Shown piece by piece: positions 798 to 35,859 of a stretch of DNA of 36,300 nt. This DNA is from Oscillospiraceae bacterium (GTDB lineage Bacteria > Bacillota > Clostridia > Oscillospirales > Ruminococcaceae): the NCBI GenBank assembly GCA_016288755.1, contig JAEELE010000109.1:1-36300 (forward strand), given 5' to 3'. The notes below the pieces were generated by a model that saw only the letters and a program-made list of their open reading frames with translations, did no database searches and had not been told where the DNA came from. The stretch's first letter is position 1; each line of letters begins with the position of its first letter. A program made the translations under genes and the position numbers.

Positions 798-888
798 GCA
801 AATACAGGCAGTGTGCATATATTTTCCATGCGCTCCGCCTGTGATTTGTATAAATTGAAGCACAACGATGCAACAAAGGAGGAATAAC

Positions 889-9658: not shown

Positions 9659-11905
9659 ATGAAAAAAGCACTCGCATTTCTCTCCGCGCTCGTGATGCTC
9701 TCGGCATCATCCGCAGCAGCTGTTCCGGCATCCGCAGCCGACAGCTACGACATGAATATCACCGTCGATCTCTCGGCGGCGGGCAAGGCGATCAGCCCGT
9801 ACATCTACGGCATCAACGAATACGGGCATCAGGACGACCTGAAAAAGGTCACGGCGACCGCCTACCGGCAGGGCGGCAACCGCATGACCGCCTACAACTG
9901 GGAGACGAACGCGTCCAACGCGGGCTCCGACTGGAAATACAGCTCCGACAACAATCTCTCGAATTCGGATGCCCCGGCTGACTGCGTGCAGCAGCTCTCA
10001 AGGGATGCCGCGAAGTACAATGTCGGCTACAAGCTGACGACGCTCCAGCTCGCGGGCTATGCCGCTGCCGACAAAAACGGAACGGTCACCGAGGCGGAGG
10101 CTGCCCCCTCCGACCGCTGGAACGAGGTCGTGCTCACCAAGGGCAGCGCCTTTGCGGAGACTCCCGATCTCACCGACGGCACGGTCTACATGGACGAGTA
10201 TGTCAACTACATCATCACAAAGCTCGGCGATTCGCAGTCGGCGACCGGCATTCAGGGCTATTCGCTCGACAACGAGCCCGCGCTCTGGCACAACACGCAC
10301 AGCCGCATCCACCCGAATCCTGTCGGCATGAAGGAGCTGAGCGACAAATCCGCCGAGATGGCAGAAGCCGTCAAGAAGCTCGACCCGAAGGCGGAGATCT
10401 TCGGTCCGGCGCTCTACGGCTACACCGCCTACGACCACCTTGCAGACACCGACAGCGATACCGAATGGGAAACGCTCAAGGAGGCGGGCGGCTATCACTG
10501 GTACATCGACTACTACCTCGACACCATGAAGCAGGCATCCGACAAGGCGGGCACCCGCCTGCTCGACGTGCTCGATATCCACTATTATTCCGAGTCCTGC
10601 CGCAACGGCACGGCGGACAGATTACAGTCCGTGCGCACGCTTTACGAAAAAGGCTTTGTCGAAAATAGCTGGATCGGACAGTGGTGCCAGACGAACATCC
10701 CGATCCTGCCGACCGTGCAGGCGTCGATCGACAAATACTATCCCGGCACCAAGCTCGGCATTACCGAGTACAATTTCGGCGGGGACGACGAGGTCTCCGG
10801 CGCGATCGCACAGATCGAAGCGCTTGGCTGCTATGCCGATGCGGGCGTGTATTTCGCGTCGATCTGGGGCGGCAGCGGCTATATCCTCTCGGGGCTCAAT
10901 CTGTATACCAACTACGACGGCAAGGGCGGCTCCTTCGGCGAAACGCTGATGCCGACCGAGACCGGGGATGTATCGAAATCCTCTGCCTATGCGGCGAAAA
11001 ATGCAGATGCTTCGACCGTGACGCTCGCACTGACCAACAAGGAGCTGTCTGCTGCCGAGCACGCAGTCATCACGCTCAGCGACGCAGAAAAGGTCTACAA
11101 AAAGGCTGCGGTCTACCTGATCGACAGCAGCACGACCGATATCCGCTATCTCGATGTGTATGACGTGGCAGACGGCAGGCTCGATCTCACACTGCCGGCA
11201 TATTCCGCGGCAATGGTCGTGATCTCCGACGATGACAACGCATTCGACGGTGCAAAGCCCGAGGAGAAAACGCAGAAGTCGACTGTTTATGAGGACCCGA
11301 TGAGCCTTGTCAACGAAAACGGCTTTGTCGAAATCCCGATCACCGATGCGGCACACCTGAAGCAAATCATCATCACCGGCGACGTGACCTCGAGTGCGGG
11401 CTCCTCGTGGGGCAATGCAGGCTGCGCGGTCTGCATCAATGCGGTCACGCCGGACGGCACGAAATTCTGGACCTCGAAGGGGTATTCGCTCTCGCTGGGC
11501 AGCGGCTCGAAGGCGATCGTCGACTTTGACGGAACGCTGACCGTGAAGGACAAGGAGACAGATACCGAGACCGAGGTGCCGGCGACCGTCGCAGACGGCA
11601 AGATCGAGCTGCAGAAATGGTGGGATGCCTCCGAGAAGCAGGAGGCGGAGATCGAAGACACGATCGCGGTGACATACACGAAGGTTGAGGTCGTGTATGA
11701 ATACACAGGTGCGGGCGAACGCACACCGGGCGATGTGAACGCCGACGGAGAAGTGACGCTTGCGGATCTGGTCGCGCTGCAGAAATTCCTGCTGGCGGAG
11801 ACCCGCACGCTTGCCGACTGGCAGGCAGCCGATCTGGACGGAAACGACAAGCTGAACGCCGCCGATCTGACTGTCTTAAAGCGGAAGCTGCTGGCAAAAG
11901 CCTGA
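9659..11905 (+). CDS. GH44 endoglucanase with CBM-like module and dockerin
   Basis: A 748-residue secreted cellulosomal enzyme. The signal peptide spans about residues 1-26. Residues of about 30-530 match glycoside hydrolase family 44 (endo-beta-1,4-glucanase/xyloglucanase). The acid/base is likely E206 in DNEPALW and the nucleophile E370 in GITEYNFGG; the GYSLDNEPALWH and IWGGSG segments are typical of the family. Residues of about 545-680 form a beta-rich module that may be a carbohydrate-binding domain; R. flavefaciens GH44 enzymes carry CBM76 there, but I cannot confirm that family. The last 58 residues are a type I dockerin (DVNADGEVT, DLDGNDKLN). AAGGGG precedes the ATG. It is probably co-transcribed with the XRE regulator and ends in a strong terminator. 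Confidence 0.9.
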   Translation: MKKALAFLSALVMLSASSAAAVPASAADSYDMNITVDLSAAGKAISPYIYGINEYGHQDDLKKVTATAYRQGGNRMTAYNWETNASNAGSDWKYSSDNNLSNSDAPADCVQQLSRDAAKYNVGYKLTTLQLAGYAAADKNGTVTEAEAAPSDRWNEVVLTKGSAFAETPDLTDGTVYMDEYVNYIITKLGDSQSATGIQGYSLDNEPALWHNTHSRIHPNPVGMKELSDKSAEMAEAVKKLDPKAEIFGPALYGYTAYDHLADTDSDTEWETLKEAGGYHWYIDYYLDTMKQASDKAGTRLLDVLDIHYYSESCRNGTADRLQSVRTLYEKGFVENSWIGQWCQTNIPILPTVQASIDKYYPGTKLGITEYNFGGDDEVSGAIAQIEALGCYADAGVYFASIWGGSGYILSGLNLYTNYDGKGGSFGETLMPTETGDVSKSSAYAAKNADASTVTLALTNKELSAAEHAVITLSDAEKVYKKAAVYLIDSSTTDIRYLDVYDVADGRLDLTLPAYSAAMVVISDDDNAFDGAKPEEKTQKSTVYEDPMSLVNENGFVEIPITDAAHLKQIIITGDVTSSAGSSWGNAGCAVCINAVTPDGTKFWTSKGYSLSLGSGSKAIVDFDGTLTVKDKETDTETEVPATVADGKIELQKWWDASEKQEAEIEDTIAVTYTKVEVVYEYTGAGERTPGDVNADGEVTLADLVALQKFLLAETRTLADWQAADLDGNDKLNAADLTVLKRKLLAKA

Positions 11906-14964: not shown

Positions 14965-16194
14965 TCAGCCCTTCACGACACCGACAGTAAACAGCTTCTT
15001 GACGGGCTCTGTCAGATCGGCCTGCTGCTCCATGACCTGATCGATGTCCTTGTAGGCAAAACGTGCCTCCTCCGCGACATCCTGATGATTGTGCTTTGCC
15101 AGAACCACATTCTTTTCCTTCAGATCGTTCATGACCGACTGCACAGAGAAGCGCTCCATCGCGCCCGTCCGCGAGCAGGTGCGTCCGGCTCCGTGCGAGG
15201 AGGAGCAGAAGCTCTCCGGATTGCCCTTTCCGCGAACAATGTAGCTGTAGGAGCCCATTGCACCGGGGATGATCGCGAGCTCACCGTTTCCTGCACGGAT
15301 GGCGCCCTTCCGGTGCACATAGAGCGTTTTTCCGAAATGCTCCTCCAGCGCAGCATAGTTATGGTGACAGTTGATCTCCTCCGAGAATTCCGGCACAGCA
15401 TCAGTATACTTTGTCACCGCCTCAGAAAAGATCTCCTTGACCTTGCCGAGCATCGCCGAGCGGTTTTCATAGGCGAAATCCATGCACAGCTGCATCCATT
15501 TCAGATACCGCTTTCCCTCATCGGAATCCGCAGGAAGAAAGGGGAGCTTCCATGCGGGGTCGACAGCGGAATGCCACTTTTCGTTCAGCGCCGCTGCGAT
15601 CTTATTGAAATACTGTCCGACAATATTACCGAAGTGGCGGCTGCCGGAGTGCAGCATGATGCAGCACATACCGTTTTCATCCTCCTGCAGTTCGATGAAA
15701 TGATTGCCGCCGCCGAGCGTCCCGATCTGAAAATACCCTTCTTCGATCTGCGGGATCAGCGCGGAATCTGCTTCATAGTGCTGCATTTCCTCCTTTGCGC
15801 GGTCCAGCACGGCAGAGGGCTGCGCCGTCCGGTGATGTGCAAATCCGGTCGGAACGTTGCGGAGGATATTCCCGCAGATCATCTGCACCAGCGTGCCGCT
15901 GCCGGTCATTGTTTCGCGCAGAAGCGAAACAGGCACACCGGTCTCCACAAAGCCCATGCCGCAGCCGATATCGACACCGACCGCATTCGGGATCACCGCG
16001 TTCTCGCAGGCAACGACACCGCCGATCGGCATTCCCTTGCCGGCATGTGCATCCGGCATCAGCGCGATCCACTTCTTCGCAAAGGGGAGCTGCGCGAGAT
16101 GGGATGCCTGTTCCAGGCTTTTCGCGTCCGGCGCATGATCTGCGGACTGCCACACCTTGACCGGAAGCTGATGTTCATTTGCGATGACAAACAT
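14965..16194 (-). CDS. rtcB: RNA-splicing ligase RtcB
   Basis: A 409-residue cytosolic enzyme that joins RNA 3'-phosphate or 2',3'-cyclic phosphate ends to 5'-OH ends, using GTP and Mn2+. Family signatures are present in order: MPDAHAGKGMPIGG, GVDIGCGMG (metal-binding Cys), TLGGGNHFIE, LHSGSRHFGN, CHHNYA, and SHGAGR with H334 as the guanylylated histidine (E. coli H337). Length is usual for the bacterial form. The ATG at 16194 follows AAAGGGTG. It is divergent from two WYL regulators, with palindromes over both promoters, suggesting induced expression. There is no archease or RtcA beside it. Bacterial RtcB repairs tRNA and rRNA breaks, which fits the neighbouring tRNA-like RNA gene (inference). 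Confidence 0.95.
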   Translation of the reverse strand: MFVIANEHQLPVKVWQSADHAPDAKSLEQASHLAQLPFAKKWIALMPDAHAGKGMPIGGVVACENAVIPNAVGVDIGCGMGFVETGVPVSLLRETMTGSGTLVQMICGNILRNVPTGFAHHRTAQPSAVLDRAKEEMQHYEADSALIPQIEEGYFQIGTLGGGNHFIELQEDENGMCCIMLHSGSRHFGNIVGQYFNKIAAALNEKWHSAVDPAWKLPFLPADSDEGKRYLKWMQLCMDFAYENRSAMLGKVKEIFSEAVTKYTDAVPEFSEEINCHHNYAALEEHFGKTLYVHRKGAIRAGNGELAIIPGAMGSYSYIVRGKGNPESFCSSSHGAGRTCSRTGAMERFSVQSVMNDLKEKNVVLAKHNHQDVAEEARFAYKDIDQVMEQQADLTEPVKKLFTVGVVKG

Positions 16195-16228
16195 ATTGAC
16201 ACACCCTTTCGTGTTTGGTTCTGTTATC

Positions 16229-16258
16229 ATCATACCGTATGACGGACTATTTTACCAA
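16229..16258 (-). promoter_or_regulatory. rtcB promoter
   Basis: Minus-strand TTGGTA (16253-16258), 18-bp spacer, TATGAT (16229-16234). Confidence 0.5.
16230..16242. promoter_or_regulatory. Palindrome over the rtcB -10
   Basis: TCATAC-C-GTATGA, 6-bp arms, overlapping the rtcB -10. Compare TGATAC/GTATCA at 16309-16327 over the WYL promoter. Candidate WYL-regulator operators (inference). Confidence 0.45.
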
Positions 16259-16288
16259 TATTTTTTTCTGCGAACACGATGTTCCGGC

Positions 16289-16317
16289 TTGCGTTTTATT
16301 CTGATTTCTGATACAAT
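16289..16317 (+). promoter_or_regulatory. Promoter of the WYL regulator pair
   Basis: TTGCGT (16289-16294), 17-bp spacer, TACAAT (16312-16317). An inverted repeat (TGATAC 16309-16314, GTATCA 16322-16327) covers the -10 and the start-site region. Confidence 0.65.
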
Positions 16318-16357
16318 AACAGTATCAAAACCGTTCGCTGAAAGGGAGGCGGAGACA

Positions 16358-17641
16358 GTGGCAGGTTTTTCCGAACTGGTCAAGAATTTTGCAAAAACCA
16401 GAGACTATGTACTGGACTTCTTTATCTACGGCTTTAAGGTGCGCGGCGATTTTTCGCAGAAGAGCGCCCGTACATATGATGACGAGAGACGCCGTGTCGA
16501 AAGCTGGCTCGGCGGCTTTGTCCGTTATGATGATTCCCGGCGCGGAAGAAAGATCTCCATTACCGTTGACAGCGGGCATATTCCGGAAAATCCGCTCTAT
16601 CAGGCGTATGATGCACGCAGCTTCACCGATAACGATATCCGGCTGCATTTTCTGCTGCTTGACCTGCTGTATGACGGTCAGGCGCAGTCACTCCGGCAGA
16701 TCACGGATGCACTCATCGCTGAATACGAAGCAGTATTCGATGAACAGACCGTGCGCGGAAAGCTCAGGGAATACGTCTCCGAAGGCATCCTGACCGCGGA
16801 AAAACGCGGAAAAACAACCTGTTTCCGCCTTTCGCCGGATACCGTCGACGGCTTTCTGGAGCGTTTTCCCGGTCTGACACCGGCGGTCAAATTTTACTCA
16901 GAATGCGGCGAATTCGGCATTGTCGGAAACCGCATCCTGAAATCAGCGGGGCTGAAAAACGATCTGTTCCTGCATAAGCACGCATACATCGTTCATACAC
17001 TCGAAGATCCGCTGCTCTGCGATATCTGTGAGGCGATCTGCGCAAAACGCGGCATCATCCTGTCCGCCGGCACCACGCGCAAACGGGCTGTCTCAGACGC
17101 ATCGGAAACGGATATCTCCGAATATCGTGTCATTCCGCTCGGTATTTTCATATCCGAGCAGACCGGCAGGCGCTATCTGGCTGCGTTTGTGCCGGAATAC
17201 AGGCGCTTCAGCAGCTTCCGGCTCGATGCCGTCCGCAAGATCACACTCTCTGATGAGGCGGAGGATTATGACGCGATCATGGCAGCATTTCAGAAGAATC
17301 TTTCGCGCTGTTACGGCGTCTCATTCGGTCTGCGGAGAACCCCCGGCATTCAGGAGCCGCTGAAGGTTCTTTTTACCGCAGATGAAGAGACGGAGCAGTT
17401 CTTTATCGAACGTCTCTTCCGCGAAAAACGGAATGGAACCGTCACACAGATCGGCAAAAATCTCTTTCAGCTGACCGTGGATGCGTTTGACCCGCATGAG
17501 GTCATGCACTGGGCAAAAAGCTGCATCGGACGGATCGTATCCGTTTCCGGCGGCACCAAGGAGATACGGGAACGATTTACATCAGATATCAGAAGAATGC
17601 AGGCAATGTACGGAGGAAAGACAAATGACACTGTTCAATGA
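16358..17641 (+). CDS. WYL-domain transcriptional regulator, first of a pair
   Basis: A 427-residue protein starting at GTG 16358, with GGGAGG 8 nt upstream. Residues of about 1-75 and 85-165 are helical and winged-helix-like (KNFAKTRDYVLDFFIYGFKV; LRQITDALIAEYEAVFDEQT). A WYL domain follows in the middle (YRVIPLGIFISEQTGRRYLA, ending FSSFRLDAVRKI), then a WCX-like C-terminal extension. WYL domains bind single-stranded nucleic acid or nucleotides and control DNA-damage, RNA-repair or phage-defence genes (PafBC, BrxR/CapW families). The gene overlaps the next WYL gene by 17 bp, implying a co-expressed and perhaps heterodimeric pair. It is divergent from rtcB, the likely target (inference). Confidence 0.8.
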   Translation: MAGFSELVKNFAKTRDYVLDFFIYGFKVRGDFSQKSARTYDDERRRVESWLGGFVRYDDSRRGRKISITVDSGHIPENPLYQAYDARSFTDNDIRLHFLLLDLLYDGQAQSLRQITDALIAEYEAVFDEQTVRGKLREYVSEGILTAEKRGKTTCFRLSPDTVDGFLERFPGLTPAVKFYSECGEFGIVGNRILKSAGLKNDLFLHKHAYIVHTLEDPLLCDICEAICAKRGIILSAGTTRKRAVSDASETDISEYRVIPLGIFISEQTGRRYLAAFVPEYRRFSSFRLDAVRKITLSDEAEDYDAIMAAFQKNLSRCYGVSFGLRRTPGIQEPLKVLFTADEETEQFFIERLFREKRNGTVTQIGKNLFQLTVDAFDPHEVMHWAKSCIGRIVSVSGGTKEIRERFTSDIRRMQAMYGGKTNDTVQ

Positions 17642-18611
17642 GATCTACGGTGCATATTTTCGTATCGCAGAACGTGTGCTTGCGCGAAAAACCGTTTCGG
17701 ACAAGGAAATCCATGAGATCATCGCACGGGAAGGCTTCCGCGATTCGGTGCTGTTTGTGCCGCAGAAGCTGCTCCCGCAGTCAGACGGCTCCGACTGGGG
17801 GCTCCTGAAACGGAATCCTGACGGCTCCCTCTCCCGTGTCATGAAGCATCCGCCTGTGAAAATCCTGACGCTTCTGCATAAGCGCTGGCTGAAAGCAAAG
17901 CTGGCGGACCCGCGCATGACACTGTTTCTGCCGGATGAAGAATTCGCTGCGCTCTCTGCGGCACTGGCTGATGTCCAGCCGCTCTATCAGCCGGCGTGGT
18001 TTCGCTATGCAGATCGTTTCAATGACGGCGACCCGTATACAGACCCTGCATACAGAAGCATATTCCGTACCGTGCTCAATGCGCTGACAACACACCGTGC
18101 GCTCGATATTGATTACATCACAAGCAGAAACAAGCGCATTCACAGACTGTTTGTGCCGCTTCGCCTGGAATACTCCGGCAAAAACGACAAATTCCGTCTG
18201 TACTGCTGCAGCATGTCCCGCAGCGGACAGCCGAAGGGTGCTCTCATCAACCTCGGACGGATCACCGCTGTGAAAACGGCGCCTGTTCCGAAGAACGGCG
18301 TCCTGACGGTCGATGAGATCTTTGAAGCACGAAAATGCAGTCAGCCGGTCACGGTGCGAGTTACGCAGGAACGAAACGGAACGGAGCGCTTTCTGATGGA
18401 ATTTGCCTCCTATGAGAAACATACCGATTTTGATCAGGCGACAGGCACACTGACCGTGCAGCTTTGGTACGACCAAACGGATGAAACAGAGCTCCTGATC
18501 CAGCTCCTGAGCTTCGGTCCGGTACTGGAGATCCTCTCACCGCCGGCATTCCGGGCGCGGGCGGCAGCACGGGTCGCAAAACAGTATGAATTGCTGCACA
18601 AGCTGCAATAA
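17625..18611 (+). CDS. WYL-domain regulator, second of a pair
   Basis: A 328-residue protein starting at ATG 17625, with GGAGG 8 nt upstream inside the end of the previous gene (17-bp overlap). The N-terminal part is helical (KTVSDKEIHEIIAREGFRDS) and a WYL-type core lies at about residues 155-225 (ALDIDYITSRNKRIHRLFVP, then KFRLYCCSMSRSGQ). A WCX-like C-terminus ends at a helix rich in Arg/Ala. No clear HTH is visible, so DNA binding may depend on the partner encoded just upstream. Tandem WYL regulators of this kind recall PafB/PafC. A separate promoter follows before the DUF4062 gene. Confidence 0.75.
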   Translation: MTLFNEIYGAYFRIAERVLARKTVSDKEIHEIIAREGFRDSVLFVPQKLLPQSDGSDWGLLKRNPDGSLSRVMKHPPVKILTLLHKRWLKAKLADPRMTLFLPDEEFAALSAALADVQPLYQPAWFRYADRFNDGDPYTDPAYRSIFRTVLNALTTHRALDIDYITSRNKRIHRLFVPLRLEYSGKNDKFRLYCCSMSRSGQPKGALINLGRITAVKTAPVPKNGVLTVDEIFEARKCSQPVTVRVTQERNGTERFLMEFASYEKHTDFDQATGTLTVQLWYDQTDETELLIQLLSFGPVLEILSPPAFRARAAARVAKQYELLHKLQ

Positions 18612-18690
18612 ACTGAAACGAGTCCTGATTCCATCATCCGGGTGAGCAGGCGGGCGGCGATACGCCATGCACGCCGATATCAACCGAAGC
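18612..18690. repeat. Diverged intergenic repeat, copy 1
   Basis: Shares CTGAAAC, ATCCGGG, GCGGC, CCATGCAC and ATATCAA blocks in the same order with 26506-26600, and part with 28857-28935. Probably the remnant of a mobile or repeated intergenic sequence. Confidence 0.4.
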
Positions 18691-18704
18691 GTTCCGGTTA
18701 TCGC

Positions 18705-18733
18705 TTGTATTCCGAATGAAAACATGGTATAAT
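18705..18733 (+). promoter_or_regulatory. SigmaA promoter of the DUF4062 gene
   Basis: TTGTAT (18705-18710), 17-bp spacer, TATAAT (18728-18733). The 10-bp palindrome AATCATGATT (18734-18743) lies at the expected transcription start. Confidence 0.7.
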
Positions 18734-18778
18734 AATCATGATTCAGCGGCATTTCAATCAGACAGGAGAATTCCGATT

Positions 18779-21700
18779 ATGCAGACCATTTTTATTTCCA
18801 GTACCTTTCAGGACATGCAGCAGGAACGTGATCTGCTCCGTGACCATGTGCTGCCGCTGCTGAAGGCAGAAAGCAAACGGTTTGGCAGAAGCATTGAGCT
18901 TTGCGACCTCCGCTGGGGTGTCAATTCGCTCGGCATGGAAAAGGCGGACCGCGATATCAAGGTCATGCAGGTCTGCTTCCGCGAGATCGACAAGGCGAAG
19001 CCGTTTTTCGTCGTTCTGCTCGGCAGCCGCTACGGCTGGATTCCGGATGCAGAAATTGTCGGGAAGATTCTGAGCAGCAGCGAAATGCAGGACCCCGATT
19101 ATTTCGGAAAAAGTGCCACTGAAATGGAAATTCTCTACGGGGCGCTGAAATCCAAAGAGCCTGCGCGGGTTTTCTTTTATTTCCGGCAGATCACAAACGC
19201 CAAAAAATCGCTGTTCTTTGATAATCCTGATCTGCCTGCGATCATGAAAAGCGCGTCCAGATCGGATGCAGAGCACATCGAAGCCCTGAAAAAGCGAATC
19301 ATCAAGCAGTTTCCGAACAATGTGCGGACCTATCGGGTCACATGGAATGCTGAAAGGCAGGAATTTGACGGAATGGAGGCCTTCTGCGAAACAGTCATCC
19401 GGGATCTGACGGAGGCGATCCGCGAGGAATACGGAAACTGCGAAGCAGCCTCGGAATACGATGTGCAGCTCCATCAATACGAGTATGCGTGCAGCGAGCA
19501 TGTTTATATCGGGCAGGAGGAATTCCTGCGGGCAGTGCAGAACGGCAGCCTCCGGCAGGTATCCGGTCTGCTGCTTCCGGTATTTCAAAAGCAGATCTGC
19601 CTGTTGGTTTCATCCAATACCTTCGGGCTGCATCAGATCTTCAGCAATCTCTGTCAGCAGTGGGGCAAATTTGCCAATGTCATTCCCTATTGCTGCGATC
19701 AGTCCATGCGCTCGGGCTCCCTGCACAATCTGCTGGCGTATTATTCGGCAATGCTCAGCCGCCGGCTCGGAAAAGCGGAAGCCGCCGACCCGGATGAACT
19801 GCCCGCAGACCGATTCCGGAGACTGATTCAGGAAACCGATGATGCGGAAAACGGGACAGTCGTGCTGGCGATCCGCGGACTGGACTGCCTGGATGAACAG
19901 GAGCTGTTCCGGTGGCTGCCGCTGACGCCGCTCCGGCATATCCGTTTTCTGCTGTCAACCGGTCACAGCCCCGCAAGCCCGGCAGCATTTCAGGCACTCT
20001 CGCAGGAGGTCTATTTCCCGGATCAGGATATCATTGACCGCCGCGTCTTTATCCGCGCATATATGTCCTTCTTTCACAAGGAGGCAGATGCGCAGCTCTG
20101 TGATGCGATCCTCGAAAAATCTGCGGGAAAAGAAGAACAGTATATGGAGCTGCTCATGCAGCGGCTGATCGTTCTTTCAAAGCAGGATTTTCAGAATATC
20201 AAACGAAACGGCGGCGGAATCGCGCAGATCTCCGCCTATCTGATCGGCTTGACTGCCGATGCGCCGGATACGGCGGAGGCGCTCGCCGATGAACAGATCA
20301 GGCTGCTCAGGCAGGAAACCTCCCCCGATTTTACGGAAACGGCATTGGGCGCACTGACCGTCCTGCCCTTCGGCATCCCGCACGGGCTTCTGACGAAATT
20401 TGCCGCGTCCAGGCAGATTCCCTGCTCGCAGCTGGATCTGACGCTGCTCAGCCGCCGGCTTTCCTTTGCAGTGCGTGAGACCTTAGACGGCTTCTATCGC
20501 TATGCACCGACCGGTCTGCGAACGGATTACAGCCCGATCTCCGCCGATGCGCTTGCCGATACTGCGCACGAATTGGAGGCGTTTTTCAGCAGGATCGAAC
20601 AGGCGGCGGAACCGATGGATGATGACACACTGGAATGCTACCGCAATAACAGGCTGTTTCTTGCCGCACGCTGCCGGAACGATTCTGTGCTGCCGGTCTA
20701 TCTGGAGCGAACCGGACATCAGCAGGAGATGTTTGCACTGCTTCTGCCGCATCTTACCGTGAAGGAATCCGTCCGGGCATGGCTTTGCCGCAGTGTCGCC
20801 GCACTCAGCGAACAGGACATTGCATGGACCGTACACAAGCTCCACCGTGTGCTTGCCCTCGGGAAACGCATTCACGACCCGGAACTCGCCGTTCCGCTGA
20901 CGGAGGTCTGGAAGGCGATTGCTGACCGCGCCGGGGCACTTGTTTCGGAGCATCAGACCCGTGATGCCTATGAAAACTGGTTTTTGGCGCTGTTCCAGAC
21001 CGGAGAGGCGGCACATCTGCACGATCTGGCATGTGCTGCGGAATATCTCGAGCATGCGAAGCGCGTTTCCGGCGAGGCGTTTGAACGCTTCCCGAACCGC
21101 TTCTGGAAATATATGCACGGCATCCCGCTGACGCCCGAGGAAATCGCAATGGACAGGGACTGGATGCCGGAAGGCATGGAGCATCCGGGCGGCGATGCGC
21201 CGATGTTTGCCTTTGACTCCGAACTCTCCGACATGCACATGACACAGCTTTGGTCCGAGAAGGTCCGCATCATCAACAGTTATCTCGCAGCGATCTACCG
21301 CAGAAACGGCGACACGGAAAAGGCATCGGCGCTTGAGAAGGAAGTCGGGACCGTCACGCAGATGGACGACCCTGATCCCCTGAACCGCGGAAACCGCGAG
21401 CTGGTGCCCGGGATCTCGATCATCATGCCCGATGAGGAGCCCGGCAGGAGCCATCCGCATCAAAAAAGGCCGTACAAGCCGGATTATCGGAGGAACTCCG
21501 CGCTGGAGCTCTCCAAGGAAGCAGGGCGTCTGCTCAGTGCAATGCCGCCCGGAAAAGAAGAAGCTGCACAGAAAATACGGGAGTCCTCTCAGATTCTGCT
21601 GGAGATCTTTGAAGACGGCGAAACCTGTGAGCGGTATGACCTTCATGACGTTACGGAGGATCCCCAGAAAGCAGCACAGCGAATCCGGATCGAATGTGCA

Positions 21701-23458
21701 AGAGACCTGTCGCTGAATGCGTGTGATCTGATCCGTGCATTGGAGCTGCGGGAGGATCAGCCGGAGCTGCTCCGGGCGATCGAGGAAATGCTCCGCTGGG
21801 CTGAGGTGTACGACAGTCATGTCAACAATGTTCAGAGCAAGAATGATCTGGAGGAGAGCTATCTGCTCTCTGCGCAGGTATATGCGTCATTTGCGCGCTT
21901 CAGCTTCTATTTTGACAGGATCCTGCGCGACGTTTCACGGTATTATCATAACCGGCTGGAGACACATAAGCTCGGCAACAGGCCCTCTGAGCACAGCATG
22001 CGCCGTCTGGCGAAAGCAGACGAAATCCTGTTTGCACTCGCATCGGCATGTCCGGAACGCGGAGACGAAATCGCCGCGCTGATGCATGAGCACAGCAACC
22101 GATGCGTCATTGCCGAGGATATCAACGGCTCCGTCCAGCTCACAAGGGATATGGAAACGCTGCTGGAATGGATGTGGGAAAACGGATATTTCTGGAAGCA
22201 GCCGGAGTACAGCCTCGAAAGCAACTACATCAGCAACATGGACAATCACTCGATGCTCTGGGAGAAGTACGGTCAGCAGGATGCGCTCAGGGACTATGCT
22301 GCGCGCATGTCGAAAAACATCCTCAAGCTGCAGGAGCAGGAAAATGTCGAGCCTGCATGCAGGTGTATTTTCCGAAATGTTCATGCACTGATCGGCAGAG
22401 GGAAGATTCATGCAGCCGCGGACGCTGCCGAACCGATCATGCAGGCGTTTGACCGCTTCGGCACAGACGGCTTCCGTATTCCGGCGCTGCAGATGTGCAA
22501 TACGGTGATCGGTGCATACTCGGATGCAGGCCGCTGTGAGGAAGCCGTCCGCAATGCAGAACGTGCGCTCCGCATTTACAATGAGATCACGGACAGCGAT
22601 TACGATGCGGCTGCGTATCACACCAGCCGGAGCCAAATTGTCATGCAGACAGCATCGGAGCATGCACGAACCTATTTATTCCTCAGCATTTCGCTCTCGA
22701 GGGCAGGCAGAAAGGAAGAGGGCAAAAAAGCGCTGGAACAGGCTGCGGAAATCTTCCGAAGCTGTCCCGGTCTGGCGGATGCCGCCCCCGATCTGTTTGC
22801 AGGGGTACAGCGTTTTCTCCGGGAAGGTCTTCCCGATCCGGATGATTCTGATGTGCCCGCAGAAACGGAGCGTTTTCACAGCCAGCGGCGCCGCATCGAG
22901 GATGCATTTGCACGGAGCATGCGGAACGGTGTTCAGGAGACAGATCTGCAGGAGATCGAAAGCCTGATCGCGGAGCTGACCCGTCTGCCGGAATACGAAC
23001 AGTCGAAAACGCATTACACCATGGCGAAATATTATCATGTGCTGTCGCAGATGTATGCAGATGTGCGGAATAAAGCGAAACAGACCGAAATGCTCAAAAA
23101 AGCTGTCCGGGAAGCGCGAACCGACCGCGAGCCCTGCAGCCTGTATGCAGAGATCTTTTCGGATTGCGGCGCACTGGCTGATGAAACCGAACAAAAGCTT
23201 TCCTATCTGCATCTGTCTGTTTGTACCTTTGAAATGCTGGAGCAGCAGGGCGAGGAGATCGACCCGAACTCCTACGCAATGGCACTTTACAATTACGGAT
23301 TGGTCAGCGCCATGCACGGGGATCGGCGGCGTGCAAAGGAAATGACGGAAAAAGCGATCAAGGTCTGGACAAGCGCCGACCCGACCGGACGGGACCAGCG
23401 CGTGCAGGCGCAGCTTTCACAGGCAAAACGGCTGCTGCTTCGCATCATGCTGCAATAA
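18779..23458 (+). CDS. DUF4062 / degenerate STAND-NTPase-like / helical-repeat protein
   Basis: A 1559-residue cytoplasmic protein; ATG at 18779 with AGGAG 10 nt upstream. Residues of about 2-90 are a DUF4062 domain (FISSTFQDMQQERD, DLRWGV, LLGSRYGWIPD), as in vertebrate TEP1 and bacterial NLR-like proteins. Residues of about 260-420 align with the NACHT/STAND core of such proteins, but the P-loop position reads LLVSSNTFGLHQIF with no GxxxxGKS. The Walker B-like strand is VVLAIRGLDCLDEQE, with Arg replacing the usual acidic residue. ATP hydrolysis is therefore doubtful. A winged-helix/helical part follows, and residues of about 950-1559 are alpha-helical, TPR-like repeats (CEEAVRNAERALRIYNE; REMTEKAI-like repeats at the end). 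The layout is that of a sensor or scaffold. Next to rtcB, WYL regulators and a tRNA-like RNA, it may sense RNA damage or infection (inference). Confidence 0.8.
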   Translation: MQTIFISSTFQDMQQERDLLRDHVLPLLKAESKRFGRSIELCDLRWGVNSLGMEKADRDIKVMQVCFREIDKAKPFFVVLLGSRYGWIPDAEIVGKILSSSEMQDPDYFGKSATEMEILYGALKSKEPARVFFYFRQITNAKKSLFFDNPDLPAIMKSASRSDAEHIEALKKRIIKQFPNNVRTYRVTWNAERQEFDGMEAFCETVIRDLTEAIREEYGNCEAASEYDVQLHQYEYACSEHVYIGQEEFLRAVQNGSLRQVSGLLLPVFQKQICLLVSSNTFGLHQIFSNLCQQWGKFANVIPYCCDQSMRSGSLHNLLAYYSAMLSRRLGKAEAADPDELPADRFRRLIQETDDAENGTVVLAIRGLDCLDEQELFRWLPLTPLRHIRFLLSTGHSPASPAAFQALSQEVYFPDQDIIDRRVFIRAYMSFFHKEADAQLCDAILEKSAGKEEQYMELLMQRLIVLSKQDFQNIKRNGGGIAQISAYLIGLTADAPDTAEALADEQIRLLRQETSPDFTETALGALTVLPFGIPHGLLTKFAASRQIPCSQLDLTLLSRRLSFAVRETLDGFYRYAPTGLRTDYSPISADALADTAHELEAFFSRIEQAAEPMDDDTLECYRNNRLFLAARCRNDSVLPVYLERTGHQQEMFALLLPHLTVKESVRAWLCRSVAALSEQDIAWTVHKLHRVLALGKRIHDPELAVPLTEVWKAIADRAGALVSEHQTRDAYENWFLALFQTGEAAHLHDLACAAEYLEHAKRVSGEAFERFPNRFWKYMHGIPLTPEEIAMDRDWMPEGMEHPGGDAPMFAFDSELSDMHMTQLWSEKVRIINSYLAAIYRRNGDTEKASALEKEVGTVTQMDDPDPLNRGNRELVPGISIIMPDEEPGRSHPHQKRPYKPDYRRNSALELSKEAGRLLSAMPPGKEEAAQKIRESSQILLEIFEDGETCERYDLHDVTEDPQKAAQRIRIECARDLSLNACDLIRALELREDQPELLRAIEEMLRWAEVYDSHVNNVQSKNDLEESYLLSAQVYASFARFSFYFDRILRDVSRYYHNRLETHKLGNRPSEHSMRRLAKADEILFALASACPERGDEIAALMHEHSNRCVIAEDINGSVQLTRDMETLLEWMWENGYFWKQPEYSLESNYISNMDNHSMLWEKYGQQDALRDYAARMSKNILKLQEQENVEPACRCIFRNVHALIGRGKIHAAADAAEPIMQAFDRFGTDGFRIPALQMCNTVIGAYSDAGRCEEAVRNAERALRIYNEITDSDYDAAAYHTSRSQIVMQTASEHARTYLFLSISLSRAGRKEEGKKALEQAAEIFRSCPGLADAAPDLFAGVQRFLREGLPDPDDSDVPAETERFHSQRRRIEDAFARSMRNGVQETDLQEIESLIAELTRLPEYEQSKTHYTMAKYYHVLSQMYADVRNKAKQTEMLKKAVREARTDREPCSLYAEIFSDCGALADETEQKLSYLHLSVCTFEMLEQQGEEIDPNSYAMALYNYGLVSAMHGDRRRAKEMTEKAIKVWTSADPTGRDQRVQAQLSQAKRLLLRIMLQ

Positions 23459-23621: not shown

Positions 23622-23794
23622 AAAAAAGCGTACATAATGTACGCCTGAAAAACATATGAGAGCCTGTCGGCGGAGTTGAACCGCCGTCTTCCGGTGGATG
23701 AGACCGGTTATTCTCACTTTGAACTATACAGGCTTGCCGAGCGGTAAAACCGCATCTCCTTCGTGAGGCGAAGGCGCTTCATAAGCTATCGGCA
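23622..23794 (-). ncRNA. Structured small RNA with tRNA-like domain
   Basis: A complete minus-strand unit of about 172 nt. Domain 1 (23794-23735) is closed by TGCCGA/TCGGCA and holds three hairpins: GCTT/AAGC (23776-23786), CCTTCG/CGAAGG (23758-23774) and GCGGT/ACCGC (23741-23753). Domain 2 (23733-23661) has exactly tRNA length without CCA (73 nt). It has an acceptor stem GCCTGT/ACAGGC, T8, A9, a D-arm-like GTTC/GAAT, a 5-bp anticodon-like stem with loop CTCATCC (CAU after U33), a 5-nt variable loop and a T-arm with GGTTCAACTCC. Departures from a real tRNA are no G18-G19 pair, C37, an A7-G66 mismatch, one extra base before the anticodon stem, U73 and no CCA. I know no family with this double four-way-junction form. 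Confidence 0.7.
23628..23644 (-). terminator. Terminator of the small RNA
   Basis: GCGTAC/GTACGC hairpin followed on the minus strand by six T (23627-23622). Confidence 0.85.
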
Positions 23795-23799
23795 TCTTT

Positions 23800-23828
23800 A
23801 TTGTAACACGATATCTACATTTTGTCAA
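23800..23828 (-). promoter_or_regulatory. Near-consensus promoter of the small RNA
   Basis: Minus-strand TTGACA (23823-23828), 17-bp spacer, TACAAT (23800-23805). Start of transcription is expected near 23793. It is one of the best promoters in the window. Confidence 0.85.
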
Positions 23829-23846: not shown

Positions 23847-24863
23847 TTGCGGGTATGTCTGATATGCAGGAAAAGGAATACTGACCGTTACGGGATCTGT
23901 GCGGAATGTCAGGCGATGAATGACGATATGCGGCAGATGTACCGTGATCTCAGGGGAATGCACGCACTTGTCACAGGAGGCCGCATTAAAATCGGCTACG
24001 CGGTATGCCTGCGCCTTCTGCGACAGGGCGCGAATGTGATCGCCGTCACACGCTATCCGAAATCTGCGCTCGAAGGCTATATGCAGGAGCCCGATTATGC
24101 GCTGTTCCGTGACAGGCTGACCGTCATCGGCTTCGACCTGATGCGTGTGGACCGGATCCCCGAGCTCGTTGCGCAGGCGGAGCGGCTCTGCGGCGGAAGG
24201 CTCGATATACTGGTAAACAACGCCGCGCAGACGGTGAAGAAATCCAATGCGTATTACGCTGCCCTGACCGCGCACGAAAACGCGCTGATGCTTGAGAACA
24301 GCAGTCTCTGTCCGATCGCGCCGCCCGACAGCTCCCTCTCCATCATGCCGAGCATTGTGCCGGTGGATTACAGCGAGACCGAACACGATAATTCGTGGGT
24401 CCGCAAGCCGGAGGAGATCTCTCCGCAGGAGCTTCTGGAGGTGCAGCTGATCAACGTCACCGCGCCCTTCATGCTGACAAACGGTCTTCGCCGCTGCCTT
24501 GCGAACGGCAATTCTCACAACCGTTTTGTCATCAATGTCAGCTCTGTGGAGGGCAGATTCCACACAAAGCAGAAGCTCGCCCGTCACGTTCATACCAATA
24601 TGGCGAAGGCTTCCCTGAATATGATGACGCACTCCATTGCGTCAGATTTTGCAAGTGACCGGATCTTCGTGTATTCCTGTGATCCGGGCTGGGTGTCAAA
24701 CCAGTTTCCGCCGGGATATGCGTTCAGTCAGGAATTCGAGCCGTATCTTTCCTATGACGACGGCGCTGCGAGAGTGCTGTATCCCGTGACCCTGCATCTG
24801 ACTGACGAAATCATAAAGGACAGCGGTCTGTTCTTCAAGGATTACAAAATCATTCCATACTGA
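23847..24863 (+). CDS. SDR-type oxidoreductase with N-terminal zinc ribbon
   Basis: A 338-residue protein. The start is a TTG at 23847, chosen because AGGAGGG lies 6 nt upstream and the protein then begins with a C4 zinc ribbon (C4-x2-C7, C18-x2-C21). A Rossmann fold follows: TGGRIKIG at 43-50 (nucleotide binding), LDILVNNAAQT (NNAG-type motif) and INVSSVEG (catalytic Ser). The YxxxK position reads TNMAK, so the usual catalytic Tyr is replaced by Thr. This is typical of a less-studied SDR subgroup with HTNMAKA and means that ordinary dehydrogenase activity is uncertain. The LRR gene starts 8 bp after its stop, so the two are co-translated. The substrate is unknown. Confidence 0.75.
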   Translation: MRVCLICRKRNTDRYGICAECQAMNDDMRQMYRDLRGMHALVTGGRIKIGYAVCLRLLRQGANVIAVTRYPKSALEGYMQEPDYALFRDRLTVIGFDLMRVDRIPELVAQAERLCGGRLDILVNNAAQTVKKSNAYYAALTAHENALMLENSSLCPIAPPDSSLSIMPSIVPVDYSETEHDNSWVRKPEEISPQELLEVQLINVTAPFMLTNGLRRCLANGNSHNRFVINVSSVEGRFHTKQKLARHVHTNMAKASLNMMTHSIASDFASDRIFVYSCDPGWVSNQFPPGYAFSQEFEPYLSYDDGAARVLYPVTLHLTDEIIKDSGLFFKDYKIIPY

Positions 24864-24871
24864 GGTGAACT

Positions 24872-26449
24872 ATGACTGTACACGAATATTTCAAGGACTC
24901 GGATGATCTGAAGGCGTCGGACGTATACGTTCCGCGCGAGCCTGAGCCACAAAAGGCAGAATGCGGTTATTTCGTTCCGCATTTTGATCTGACCCGTGAA
25001 CAGGCAAAGGCGCAGGGCTGGCATTACAGGATCAAGTCCGGCGGCAGACTGCGGATCACGCATTATACCGGCACAGAACGCGAAGTCGTGGCGCCCCATA
25101 GCATCGGCGGATATATCACGAACGAGATCGGAAAGGGAGCCTTTGCCGACGTGAATGCCGATATCATATTTTTGCCCGACAGCGTCAAGGAGATCGGTGA
25201 GGGCTGTTTTTCCGGGAGCAGCATCCGGCGTGCGGTGCTTCCGGAAGGCGTGACCGCGCTTCCGGACAAGTGCTTCTTCGGCTGCAAACAGCTCGAAAGC
25301 GTCCGGCTTCCCCGGTATCTGAGGGGGATCGGAAACAGGGCGTTCATGTACTGCGAAAAAATCAGGGAATTCACCGTCACAGACAGTATGCGGGAATTCG
25401 GCGAGGAGATCTTCCGTGCCAGCGGACTGGAGCAGTTTTATGCGAGGCGGGGAAAGCCCTTCCGTTTTAACGGCAGCATCTTCATCGGTACGCCGCTGCA
25501 CCTGAATCATTCTCTGATCATCGAGCCGACAACCGAAAACACGAACGATTACAAGGTGCTGCTCGTCGGCTCGATGAAGACTGTGCGCTTTCCCAAGGGC
25601 GCGCATGCGGTGTTCATGGATCAGTCCGTTCAGCACGGCTGCAGCCTTGATCTATCGAAATGCAGCAGCGTTGATTTCACCTACAATTCATTCGCCTGTA
25701 AGCGGAACAGCTGGGGCTTGGTCACTTCACACAGTCTGGTCAATATTATCATGCCATACGCTGCAAGAGCGTATCTCCCGTATTATGTGCACGCATATTA
25801 CCCCGACGGAAGCATATACCCGCACACAAGCTGGTTTACCGATGTGCGGATCACCGGAGACTCGGCGTATCTGAAGCCAAGGAACAACCGGATGCCGGAG
25901 TATTGCTTTACAGACCTTGATTTCAGGAAAAACGAGCTCAGGCGTCTTGTGATAGACGGCGGGACAAGCCGGATTGAGTATGAGCCCAATGCGATCCGAA
26001 GCGGCCGCATTCGAAGCGTTGCCGTCAAGGGCAATCTTCACGGCACCGGACCCCTGTTCGCAGACAGCTGCTGTAGGCTGGAACGGGTGACGCTCGGCGG
26101 GTTTACCGTTTGTATCCCGCCCGGAAACCGCAAAGTCCACAGGGTCCTGCTCGGTGCTTTCCGCGATGCGGACGGTTATCCGTGCAGATGCTTTGACAGC
26201 AGCGTGTACGACAGGGTCTTCACTGAGCCGCCGAAAAGCTGGGGCTGCTCCGAATTGAAAAGGCTGAGCCAAAGGCAGCTGATCATGATCGCCGTGGCTG
26301 TGCTGCGCAGCTCGCCGGCTCTGTTTCCGAATCGTGAGATGTATGCCGACTATCTCAGATCGCACAAACGCTATGCAGAACTGCTGTCCGGCAAGCTGCC
26401 GAATGAGTATGCGTTTATTCTGAAAAACTTATATGAGACGGGACTGTGA
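24872..26449 (+). CDS. Cytoplasmic leucine-rich repeat protein
   Basis: A 525-residue protein; ATG at 24872 with GAGGTG 5 nt upstream. It has no signal peptide or membrane segment, unlike the secreted BspA-type proteins elsewhere in the window. Residues of about 75-200 are LRR_5-type repeats (IIFLPDSVKEIGEGCFSGSS, VTALPDKCFFGCKQLESVRL). A second beta-rich stretch lies at about 230-430, and a helical C-terminus (about 455-525) contains LSQRQLIMIAVAVLRSS. It forms an operon with the zinc-ribbon SDR. Pairing an intracellular LRR protein with an SDR suggests a protein complex or modification system, but I cannot assign a function. Confidence 0.75.
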   Translation: MTVHEYFKDSDDLKASDVYVPREPEPQKAECGYFVPHFDLTREQAKAQGWHYRIKSGGRLRITHYTGTEREVVAPHSIGGYITNEIGKGAFADVNADIIFLPDSVKEIGEGCFSGSSIRRAVLPEGVTALPDKCFFGCKQLESVRLPRYLRGIGNRAFMYCEKIREFTVTDSMREFGEEIFRASGLEQFYARRGKPFRFNGSIFIGTPLHLNHSLIIEPTTENTNDYKVLLVGSMKTVRFPKGAHAVFMDQSVQHGCSLDLSKCSSVDFTYNSFACKRNSWGLVTSHSLVNIIMPYAARAYLPYYVHAYYPDGSIYPHTSWFTDVRITGDSAYLKPRNNRMPEYCFTDLDFRKNELRRLVIDGGTSRIEYEPNAIRSGRIRSVAVKGNLHGTGPLFADSCCRLERVTLGGFTVCIPPGNRKVHRVLLGAFRDADGYPCRCFDSSVYDRVFTEPPKSWGCSELKRLSQRQLIMIAVAVLRSSPALFPNREMYADYLRSHKRYAELLSGKLPNEYAFILKNLYETGL

Positions 26450-34821: not shown

Positions 34822-35859
34822 TCAGCGAGGTGCTGAAACCCCAAGTAAATCCTCAAAGAATCCATCGATTTTTTCGTCCACATGTCTGCGCTCATCAGAG
34901 AAAGTATGCTGATATACAGCTTTCAGCGTTGCGTTTGTAGACCAACCGCCGCGCTCCATTGCGTACTTGTCAGGCACGCCGAGCATCAGCATAATGGAGG
35001 CGTTCAAATGTCGGAGGTCATGCAGCGTCAGTGTATATCCGTATTCAGCAGTCAGTTTGTCAAGATGATACTTGATGACCTGATAGTTCATGGGAACGAT
35101 GAACTCTTCATCTGACTGATGCGGAACAGCGTTAATCAGATTCATGATGTACTGCGGAACAACAAGCTTTCGCGTCGAGCTGTAGGTCTTGTTGACACTG
35201 CGAACGACATCTTTATTCGCCAAACTAATCTTGCTGCGCTGAACTGTCATCACACCATCCTTGATATCACCAAACTGAAGGCCACGAACCTCACTGATTC
35301 TCAAGGAGAGCCACATGGAAAGCATGCAGGGGAGTTCAATATCGGTTCCGCGAATCATGCAGATTACCTGTTCCGCTGTCGGCAGATTTTTGATAACCGG
35401 CTGCTTCGGAGGTAAAGTGACTTTCAGATTGAGATTAACGTCATACAATCTCACAGCGGTAATAATCAGATTTTTTGCTTCACGAATCGACTTGGAACAT
35501 TTTGTGAGTGCATCCTCATTGATCGCTTTCTGCATTGCGATGCTGTCTAACTCATGAATGTCAAGCGACATGACACTCTGCAAGCGATTATTGAGAATGT
35601 TTTCATACCCGTAGATCGTCGAAGGCGACAAAACATTCCGTTTCAGATCTATGTAGCCGCGGATTGCCTGTCTCACAGTAAACTTGCTCGGATCGGCCTC
35701 CTCCAGGCCGTTGGAAATGAGATATTCCATTGCCAGCCGTTCTGCTTCCCGTTTGGTAGATGCGGTGATGGATTTTTTTCTTTTGGTTCCGTTCTTGTCC
35801 TTACCAAGAAAAATCTGTACCCTCCAATTGCCGGAAGGTGTCTTTTTTGCAGTTGCCAT
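34822..35859 (-). CDS. Tyrosine recombinase (phage/ICE-type integrase)
   Basis: 345 residues; ATG at 35859 with AAAGGAG 6 nt upstream. Residues of about 1-60 are an AP2-like/arm-binding N-terminal domain (GNWRVQIFLGKDKNGTKRKK). Residues of about 60-160 are a core-binding SAM-like domain. Residues of about 165-345 are the catalytic domain, with Arg in SLRISEVRGL, His and Arg in LHDLRHLNAS, and the nucleophile Tyr in TLKAVYQHTF. It catalyses site-specific integration and excision through a 3'-phosphotyrosyl link. It lies next to the tRNA-Ser fragment and reads towards it, the standard layout at one end of a prophage or integrative element extending to the right. The gene looks complete. Confidence 0.9.
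   Translation of the reverse strand: MATAKKTPSGNWRVQIFLGKDKNGTKRKKSITASTKREAERLAMEYLISNGLEEADPSKFTVRQAIRGYIDLKRNVLSPSTIYGYENILNNRLQSVMSLDIHELDSIAMQKAINEDALTKCSKSIREAKNLIITAVRLYDVNLNLKVTLPPKQPVIKNLPTAEQVICMIRGTDIELPCMLSMWLSLRISEVRGLQFGDIKDGVMTVQRSKISLANKDVVRSVNKTYSSTRKLVVPQYIMNLINAVPHQSDEEFIVPMNYQVIKYHLDKLTAEYGYTLTLHDLRHLNASIMLMLGVPDKYAMERGGWSTNATLKAVYQHTFSDERRHVDEKIDGFFEDLLGVSAPR

What the first reader, a model, noticed from the sequence alone, without database searches (positions are those of the whole stretch)
23622..23828. New structured RNA: two tandem four-way junctions, one mimicking a tRNA
A minus-strand unit has a near-consensus promoter (TTGACA-17-TACAAT), about 172 nt of RNA and an intrinsic terminator. 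Almost every base falls in two domains, each a closing stem with three internal hairpins. The second domain is 73 nt with T8, A9, GTTCAA of a D-arm, a CAU loop after U33 and a GTTCAACTC T-loop, but lacks the G18-G19 pair, has C37, U73 and no CCA. It therefore looks like a tRNA mimic rather than a working tRNA. It matches no class that I recognise.
Basis: seen in the sequence. Interest (0 to 1): 0.85.

Follow-up and report, generated by a model that had tools for sequence, protein, structure and literature searches.

The report
Double tRNA-like RNA with enzyme partner
A small bacterial RNA built from two tRNA-like folds seems unable to work in translation, and it and similar tRNA look-alikes sit beside one particular NAD(P)-type enzyme gene in several bacterial phyla, which points to an undescribed RNA-enzyme partnership.

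Summary
In detail: promoter, about 175 nt of RNA and terminator on the minus strand, folding as two four-way junctions. Covariation supports both: 14 of 38 pairs change on both sides in 7 sequences, 34 of 38 in 26 units. Domain 2 is called a tRNA by ARAGORN and Rfam, but the family is not ordinary tRNA: 12 of 26 units keep a 7-nt loop with U33 (62 of 63 ordinary tRNAs), 7 of 26 a GG in the D-loop (62 of 63), 0 of 26 encode CCA (37 of 63). New here: two neighbour genes. One is a zinc-ribbon SDR; the 9 of 396 family genomes with it are all among the 14 with strong RNA hits. The other is an LRR_5 protein whose 14 best matches in 11 RNA-bearing genomes all lie beside an RNA unit. Outside the family, 13 of 17 short-form SDR loci have tRNA or tRNA-like genes alongside, against 1 of 47 long-form loci (split made after seeing the data). 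I read it as a non-decoding tRNA-derived RNA serving that enzyme; the chemistry is unproven.

The parts
23800..23828 (-). sigma-70-type promoter TTGACA-17-TACAAT with extended -10 TG
   Evidence: TTGAC plus a TG just before the -10 stand upstream of 22 of 26 units
23622..23796 (-). predicted RNA of about 175 nt (start inferred from the promoter)
   Evidence: fold z -4.28; R1/R2 model matches 143.2 and 131.9 bits (the window is in both models)
23735..23794 (-). domain 1 (D1): shortened tRNA-like four-way junction, 6-bp closing stem, D-like arm, anticodon-like arm, T-like arm with a 3-nt loop
   Evidence: no Rfam match up to E 10; likeness to tRNA judged by eye
23661..23733 (-). domain 2 (D2): tRNA-like cloverleaf, CAU triplet, no D-loop GG, no CCA
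   Evidence: ARAGORN tRNA-Met, RF00005 42.3 bits, covariation
23626..23646 (-). intrinsic terminator stem-loop followed by a U tract
23847..24863 (+). divergent gene: zinc ribbon (CxxC...CxxC) + SDR oxidoreductase
   Evidence: Pfam adh_short 78.1 bits; family alignment; co-occurrence with the RNA
24872..26449 (+). LRR_5 protein of the RNA-linked subfamily, directly after the SDR gene
   Evidence: Pfam LRR_5 78.1 bits; 14 best matches in 11 genomes all beside RNA units

Best explanation
The transcript is a dedicated noncoding RNA made of two tRNA-derived cloverleaf-like domains that no longer decode codons. It is the RNA partner, as ligand, carrier or substrate, of the zinc-ribbon SDR encoded next door, and in this lineage also of an LRR_5 protein. 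Shown by computation: the fold and its conservation, loss of decoding features in the family, promoter and terminator sequences, and linkage to the two protein families. Inferred: transcription, that the zinc ribbon docks the RNA, and the chemistry. My preferred chemistry is that the RNA, charged with an amino acid through a synthetase, presents that group to the NAD(P)-type SDR, as acyl carrier protein presents acyl groups to SDR ketoreductases (recalled). Loss of U33 while a triplet and A37 are often kept would bar such RNAs from the ribosome but leave synthetase recognition. I put the RNA-SDR functional module at about 0.65 and the carrier chemistry at about 0.25.
For: Covariation in two alignments. 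Unit search: strong hits (87 bits or more, 12 units) in 8 of 30 genus genomes, 14 of 396 family genomes at E up to 1.1e-8, own genome plus G965 among 295 order genomes, own genome alone among 299 phylum genomes. The SDR at E below 1e-40 occurs in 9 of 396 family genomes, all 9 among those 14 (hypergeometric 3e-15, relatedness ignored and the E cut set after seeing the noise floor). G965, found by the RNA model alone, has RNA / SDR / LRR in the window's order (SDR E 6e-148, LRR E 4e-18). An independent protein scan reached Bacteroidota, Campylobacterota, Actinomycetota and Armatimonadota: ARAGORN calls within 1.4 kb in 13 of 17 short-form SDR loci outside the family (two viral contigs and one Deinococcus plasmid included) against 1 of 47 long-form loci. 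Rfam RF00005 beside the SDR in 11 of 14 short-form genome loci, none anywhere in the 6 long-form loci given. Of 26 such elements, 15 keep U33 in a 7-nt loop, against 48 of 49 controls.
Against: Five of the 14 RNA-bearing family genomes lack this SDR at E below 1e-40 (G003, G484, G449, G220, G451), and in G246 and G343 RNA and SDR are on different contigs. The short/long split was made after I had seen where tRNAs lay, and the lengths are close (up to 370 against 378 residues and more). Aminoacylation is untested. Several D2s in the window's genus have lost a recognisable triplet, which speaks against synthetase recognition there. Elements with a GCU triplet lack the long variable arm that bacterial SerRS needs (recalled). 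More than half (15 of 26) of the elements outside the family still have a normal-looking loop. The SDR fold matches only generic NADP SDRs, and its catalytic Tyr (YxxxK, recalled) is Thr in HTNMAK, so activity itself is uncertain. Four short-form loci (L125, L160, L177, L201) have no tRNA call.
Confidence: 0.6

Rival explanations
1. The RNAs are decoys or sentinels for tRNA-cutting or tRNA-modifying toxins within an RNA-damage or defence locus; the SDR and LRR proteins sense or process the damaged mimic.
For: The window also carries RtcB (14965-16233, -), two WYL-type proteins and a DUF4062-TPR protein; the Aquimarina locus has two RtcB genes near the SDR; triplets vary between units of an array.
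Against: RtcB linkage is not conserved: of 19 RNA-bearing genomes searched, 16 have RtcB, and in the 15 other than the window's it is on another contig or over 100 kb from an RNA unit (assemblies are fragmented). No PADLOC match for the SDR, LRR or DUF4062 proteins. In several units of the genus the anticodon loop has degenerated.
Confidence: 0.22
2. The RNA regulates the divergent SDR-LRR operon or other genes as a trans or antisense RNA, the tRNA-like fold serving for stability.
For: The RNA is divergent from the SDR in window, G007, G057, G211, G242, G356, G471, G488 and G965; some units lie just upstream of a metabolic gene on the same strand (L091, L073).
Against: It lies on the opposite strand and outside the SDR gene; in three of four Bacteroidota loci (L124, L126, L153) the tRNA-like genes are downstream of the SDR on the same strand; copy number varies.
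Confidence: 0.08
3. Ordinary tRNA genes or decaying tRNA pseudogenes.
For: ARAGORN and Rfam call D2 a tRNA; the window loop is 7 nt with U33; two D2s in the G057 array score 64.8 and 67.5 bits with an intact D-loop.
Against: 34 of 38 pairs show changes on both sides, so the fold is under selection; U33, D-loop GG and CCA are lost far beyond ordinary tRNAs; each unit pairs a conserved domain 1 with D2, and 23 of 26 units have a TTGAC element upstream.
Confidence: 0.05
4. A mobile element carrying the SDR integrates at tRNA genes, so the tRNA-likes are attachment sites.
For: tRNA genes are common integration sites (recalled); relatives occur in two IMG/VR contigs and three plasmid records; by eye, recombinase-like ORFs lie 2 to 3 kb from the SDR in both viral contigs (L200:8943-9788, L201:4019-5221); the window has an integrase at 34822-35859.
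Against: Elements often come in close tandem sets, on either side of the SDR, many with non-standard anticodon loops; no integrase was recognised among the genes directly beside the RNA or SDR in the Pfam scans made, which covered only some loci; the window integrase is 11 kb away.
Confidence: 0.05

Closest known systems
tRNA (Rfam RF00005)
   Same: Cloverleaf of D2, U8-A9-like bases, T-arm sequence, Rfam score above the cut-off
   Different: Joined to a second junction domain; U33, D-loop GG and CCA missing in many units; own promoter and terminator; linked to SDR and LRR genes
YrlA / bacterial Y RNAs (recalled)
   Same: tRNA-like module encoded beside its protein partner
   Different: No such Rfam match up to E 10; no Ro60/TROVE protein among 18 Pfam-scanned window proteins; one relative locus has a DUF2828/DUF7788 protein
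Dedicated tRNAs used outside translation (such as peptidoglycan tRNA-Gly; recalled)
   Same: tRNA fold with features that would keep it off the ribosome
   Different: None that I recall carries a second cloverleaf-like domain or is linked to an SDR
tmRNA
   Same: Contains a tRNA-like domain
   Different: No tmRNA found by ARAGORN in the window

Membership tests
tRNA RF00005 | Covariance-model score above the gathering cut-off | tested here: met
   42.3 bits against 29 for D2 of the window; in the family it is met by 12 of the 21 units scanned and not by the other 9 (L096, L097, L098, L099, L100-L103 and the first unit of L104)
tRNA RF00005 | 7-nt anticodon loop with U33 | tested here: not met
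   Met in the window copy (loop CUCAUCC), but only in 12 of 26 family units, against 62 of 63 ordinary tRNAs of the same bacterial family
tRNA RF00005 | G18-G19 in the D-loop | tested here: not met
   Absent in the window; 7 of 26 units in the aligned D-loop, 11 of 26 by the cruder positional rule used on the controls, which gave 62 of 63
tRNA RF00005 | 3' CCA | tested here: inconclusive
   Encoded in 0 of 26 units; ordinary tRNAs there encode it in 37 of 63, so it could be added after transcription
tRNA RF00005 | Aminoacylation and ribosomal decoding | not testable with these tools
   needs bench work
YrlA-type Y RNA | Match to a described RNA family | tested here: inconclusive
   cmscan of 501 bases at E up to 10 lists four families, none of this kind; I did not check that the library holds YrlA
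YrlA-type Y RNA | Ro60/TROVE gene beside it | tested here: not met
   none among 18 window proteins scanned with Pfam; not every window ORF was scanned
tmRNA | tmRNA call | tested here: not met
   ARAGORN finds no tmRNA in the window
classical SDR enzyme (partner protein) | Rossmann fold with a TGxxxGxG-type motif | tested here: met
   Pfam adh_short, Foldseek to NADP SDRs, best E 4.8e-13, TGGRIxIGY invariant in 10 of 10
classical SDR enzyme (partner protein) | Catalytic Tyr of YxxxK (recalled motif) | tested here: not met
   Thr in HTNMAK, invariant in 10 of 10

The most novel reading that the evidence does not exclude
An undescribed class of bacterial ribonucleoprotein enzyme systems, spread over several phyla, in which sets of tRNA-derived non-decoding RNAs act as interchangeable amino-acid carriers or specificity modules for a zinc-ribbon SDR oxidoreductase; in the window's lineage the RNA has evolved into a two-cloverleaf molecule with an LRR partner.
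Probability: 0.25. Interest if true: 0.95.

Novelty: categorically new. Interest (0 to 1): 0.82.

Why it matters
tRNAs have a few known jobs outside translation. A tRNA-derived RNA family that has shed decoding features, occurs in arrays with different triplets, and is tied across phyla to one oxidoreductase family would be a new way of coupling the tRNA scaffold to metabolism or stress. It also warns that automatic annotation can call such RNAs ordinary tRNAs. The pairing can be tested directly with pull-downs and small-RNA sequencing.

Tried and rejected
RtcB/RNA-repair link: RtcB lies 7.4 kb from the RNA in the window and near the Aquimarina SDR, but elsewhere it is not linked as far as the contigs show, so I do not build on it. 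Permissive ARAGORN (-ps85) gave no enrichment near SDRs (1.05-fold), which I put down to noise in GC-rich DNA; default ARAGORN and Rfam were used instead. A first automatic search for the anticodon arm mis-set 2 of 6 ordinary control tRNAs and was replaced by a more lenient one. Viral pattern scan: 76 loci whose R1 matches reach at most 43.1 bits, the range of ordinary tRNAs, so they were set aside. DNA search of the RNA in plasmids: none; in phages: one 36-base match, E 0.7, in a Streptomyces phage tRNA-Ile. The SDR in phage records at E up to 1e-25: none. Of three plasmid records with the SDR I fetched one, the best. Fold searches gave generic SDRs and LRR_5 proteins. A possible kissing of D1 and D2 loops, looked at by eye, showed no consistent complementarity. 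With R1 what appear to be ordinary tRNAs reach about 44 bits, with R2 about 58, so weaker hits were not counted; the cut for 'strong' was set after seeing that floor. In the SDR counts 7 partial rows under 330 residues were dropped (none with a tRNA near); loci L188-L199 of the scan (weak relatives) were not included. An LRR gene after the SDR in L072 was seen by eye but not confirmed by BLAST. Literature: nine searches, of which I saw listings and starts of abstracts; three returned nothing; one paper was looked at by passages (PMC8040213). Most subscription journals and bioRxiv preprints are not held.

Full report
Observation. The minus strand at 23828-23622 holds a TTGACA-17-TACAAT promoter with an extended -10, about 175 nt of RNA and an intrinsic terminator. 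The predicted fold is two consecutive four-way junctions and the terminator (z -4.28, 0 of 200 shuffles as stable). D1 (23794-23735) has a 6-bp closing stem and three hairpins, the last with a 3-nt loop. D2 (23733-23661) is a cloverleaf that ARAGORN calls tRNA-Met(CAT) and that scores 42.3 bits with Rfam RF00005. D1 has no Rfam match up to E 10. Transcription itself is not shown.

Conservation. BLASTN in 199 related genomes found homologues at E below 1e-4 only in the same genus (G002, G003, G007, G012, G025, G028). Seven aligned sequences (MAFFT; my structure string came from folds of the same sequences) pair in 93.5% of cells, with 14 of 38 pairs changed on both sides. No shuffle of 500 reached the observed paired cells, double changes or covariation score, whereas 364 of 500 reached the measure 'further pair types'; slid versions reach 53% paired at most. 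With 26 units aligned to the model, 94.5% of cells pair and 34 of 38 pairs change on both sides, covariation score 0.576 against 0.153 for the best slide, 0 of 500 shuffles on all five measures (that alignment is fitted to the structure, and the shuffles ignore relatedness). The weakest element is the D1 D-like arm, 74% paired. Folded singly, seven homologous units have z from -0.69 to -2.60, and some do not take the two-junction form as their lowest-energy fold.

Distribution. Model R1: strong hits (87 bits or more, 12 units) in 8 of 30 genus genomes, and hits at E up to 1.1e-8 in 14 of 396 family genomes. Refined model R2: own genome and G965, from another family, among 295 genomes of the order; own genome alone among 299 of the phylum. 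Units occur alone or in tandem: six consecutive units in G057 with triplets ACG, CGC, CUC, CCA, CUC and GCU; pairs in G007, G242 and G488; three in G211. Of 26 units, 23 have TTGAC in the 30 nt upstream and 22 have it together with a TG just before the -10.

Not a decoding tRNA. With a lenient rule, 12 of 26 units have a 7-nt anticodon loop with U33, against 62 of 63 ordinary tRNAs from other loci of the same bacterial family (Fisher 1.6e-8). A GG stands in the aligned D-loop of 7 of 26 units; by the cruder positional rule used for the controls the count is 11 of 26, against 62 of 63 (1e-12 and 3e-9). No unit encodes CCA; 37 of 63 ordinary tRNAs do. Loops of 4 to 6 nt occur in the genus. The compensatory changes show that the cloverleaf itself is kept. 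The window copy alone still has a 7-nt loop with U33, so the argument rests on the family, and two D2s of the G057 array look like good tRNAs (64.8 and 67.5 bits).

Protein partners. Divergent from the RNA is a zinc-ribbon SDR (23847-24863) followed by an LRR_5 protein (24872-26449). The SDR at E below 1e-40 occurs in 9 of 396 family genomes, and all 9 are among the 14 with RNA hits. In 7 of the 9 it is beside the RNA (window, G057, G211, G242, G356, G471, G488); in G246 and G343 it is on another contig. It is also beside the RNA in G007 and about 2 kb away in G028. The reverse is weaker: 5 of the 14 RNA genomes lack the SDR. The LRR protein, searched in 11 genomes chosen because they carry the RNA, gives 27 matches. 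The 14 best (E below 1e-24) all lie within about 1.5 kb of an RNA unit, one of them a weak unit of 47 bits (G471:C16); the other 13 (E above 1e-19) cover short stretches, 12 of them on contigs without a strong unit and one a second piece of the G007 gene. No LRR match to the window's protein was found by BLAST in the stretches held around the RNA units of G242, G220, G484, G343 and G451 or the three RNA loci of G246. G965, found by the RNA model alone, has RNA / SDR / LRR in the window's order, and the SDR of G246 is followed by an LRR gene.

Beyond the family. ARAGORN calls tRNA within 1.4 kb in 13 of 17 short-form loci outside the family and 1 of 47 long-form loci (2e-9, relatedness ignored; the 17 include two IMG/VR contigs and one Deinococcus plasmid). 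With Rfam, 11 of 14 short-form genome loci have RF00005 matches beside the SDR and 0 of the 6 long-form loci given have any. On a tree of 74 SDRs the label needs 9 changes against 18.6 when shuffled (0 of 500, quick tree, several long branches). Of 26 such elements, 15 keep a 7-nt loop with U33 against 48 of 49 controls, the exception being the G965 family member. Several keep the triplet and A37 while U33 is lost. The Campylobacteraceae elements are followed by CCA.

Mechanism. What the RNA does is inferred. Constant features are the tRNA shape, frequent loss of decoding marks and linkage to an NAD(P)-type enzyme with a zinc ribbon. The model that I prefer is an RNA partner of the SDR, perhaps an amino-acid carrier; a decoy or sentinel in RNA-damage defence is the main rival. 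The SDR model (pLDDT 75) resembles only generic NADP SDRs in the 50 rows shown, and its YxxxK tyrosine is a threonine in all ten aligned sequences, so the reaction cannot be read from the fold. The LRR model (pLDDT 85) resembles BspA-type LRR proteins.

Novelty. Nine text searches of the held library listed no paper that I recognised as describing such a system; I saw listings and starts of abstracts, and passages of one paper. A description in a subscription journal or a preprint cannot be excluded.

Noticed in passing
window 14965-23458: RtcB RNA ligase (-), two WYL-type proteins and a 1580-aa DUF4062-TPR protein in a row beside the RNA locus; looks like a conflict or RNA-repair island, but RtcB linkage is not conserved.
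   Followed up: partly
G000:C78:11-149 (L100): A second RNA unit in the window's own genome, near a contig end (107.7 bits).
   Followed up: no
window 868-6021 and 9659-11905: LRR_5 protein with a dockerin, and GH44 glycoside hydrolase with a dockerin: suggests a cellulosome-type bacterium.
   Followed up: no
L145:5180-5668: Sphingobacterium locus with a duplicated pair of tRNA-likes, one near-normal (57.5 and 58.7 bits) and one degenerate (29.6 bits), upstream of the SDR.
   Followed up: partly
L091:2761-4026 and L073:167-1633: RNA units lie just upstream, same strand, of a gene that reads by eye like a PLP-dependent sulfur amino-acid enzyme; not searched in a family library.
   Followed up: no
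L109:1803-4052 (-): An RNA-linked LRR protein whose C-terminus differs from the others and by eye recalls a CYTH domain; Pfam found only LRR_5.
   Followed up: partly
L091:6245-7762 (-): DUF2828/DUF7788 protein near the G242 RNA pair.
   Followed up: no
L200:8943-9788 and L201:4019-5221: Recombinase-like ORFs (by eye) 2 to 3 kb from the SDR in both viral contigs.
   Followed up: no
window 34822-35859 (-): Phage-type integrase near the end of the window.
   Followed up: no
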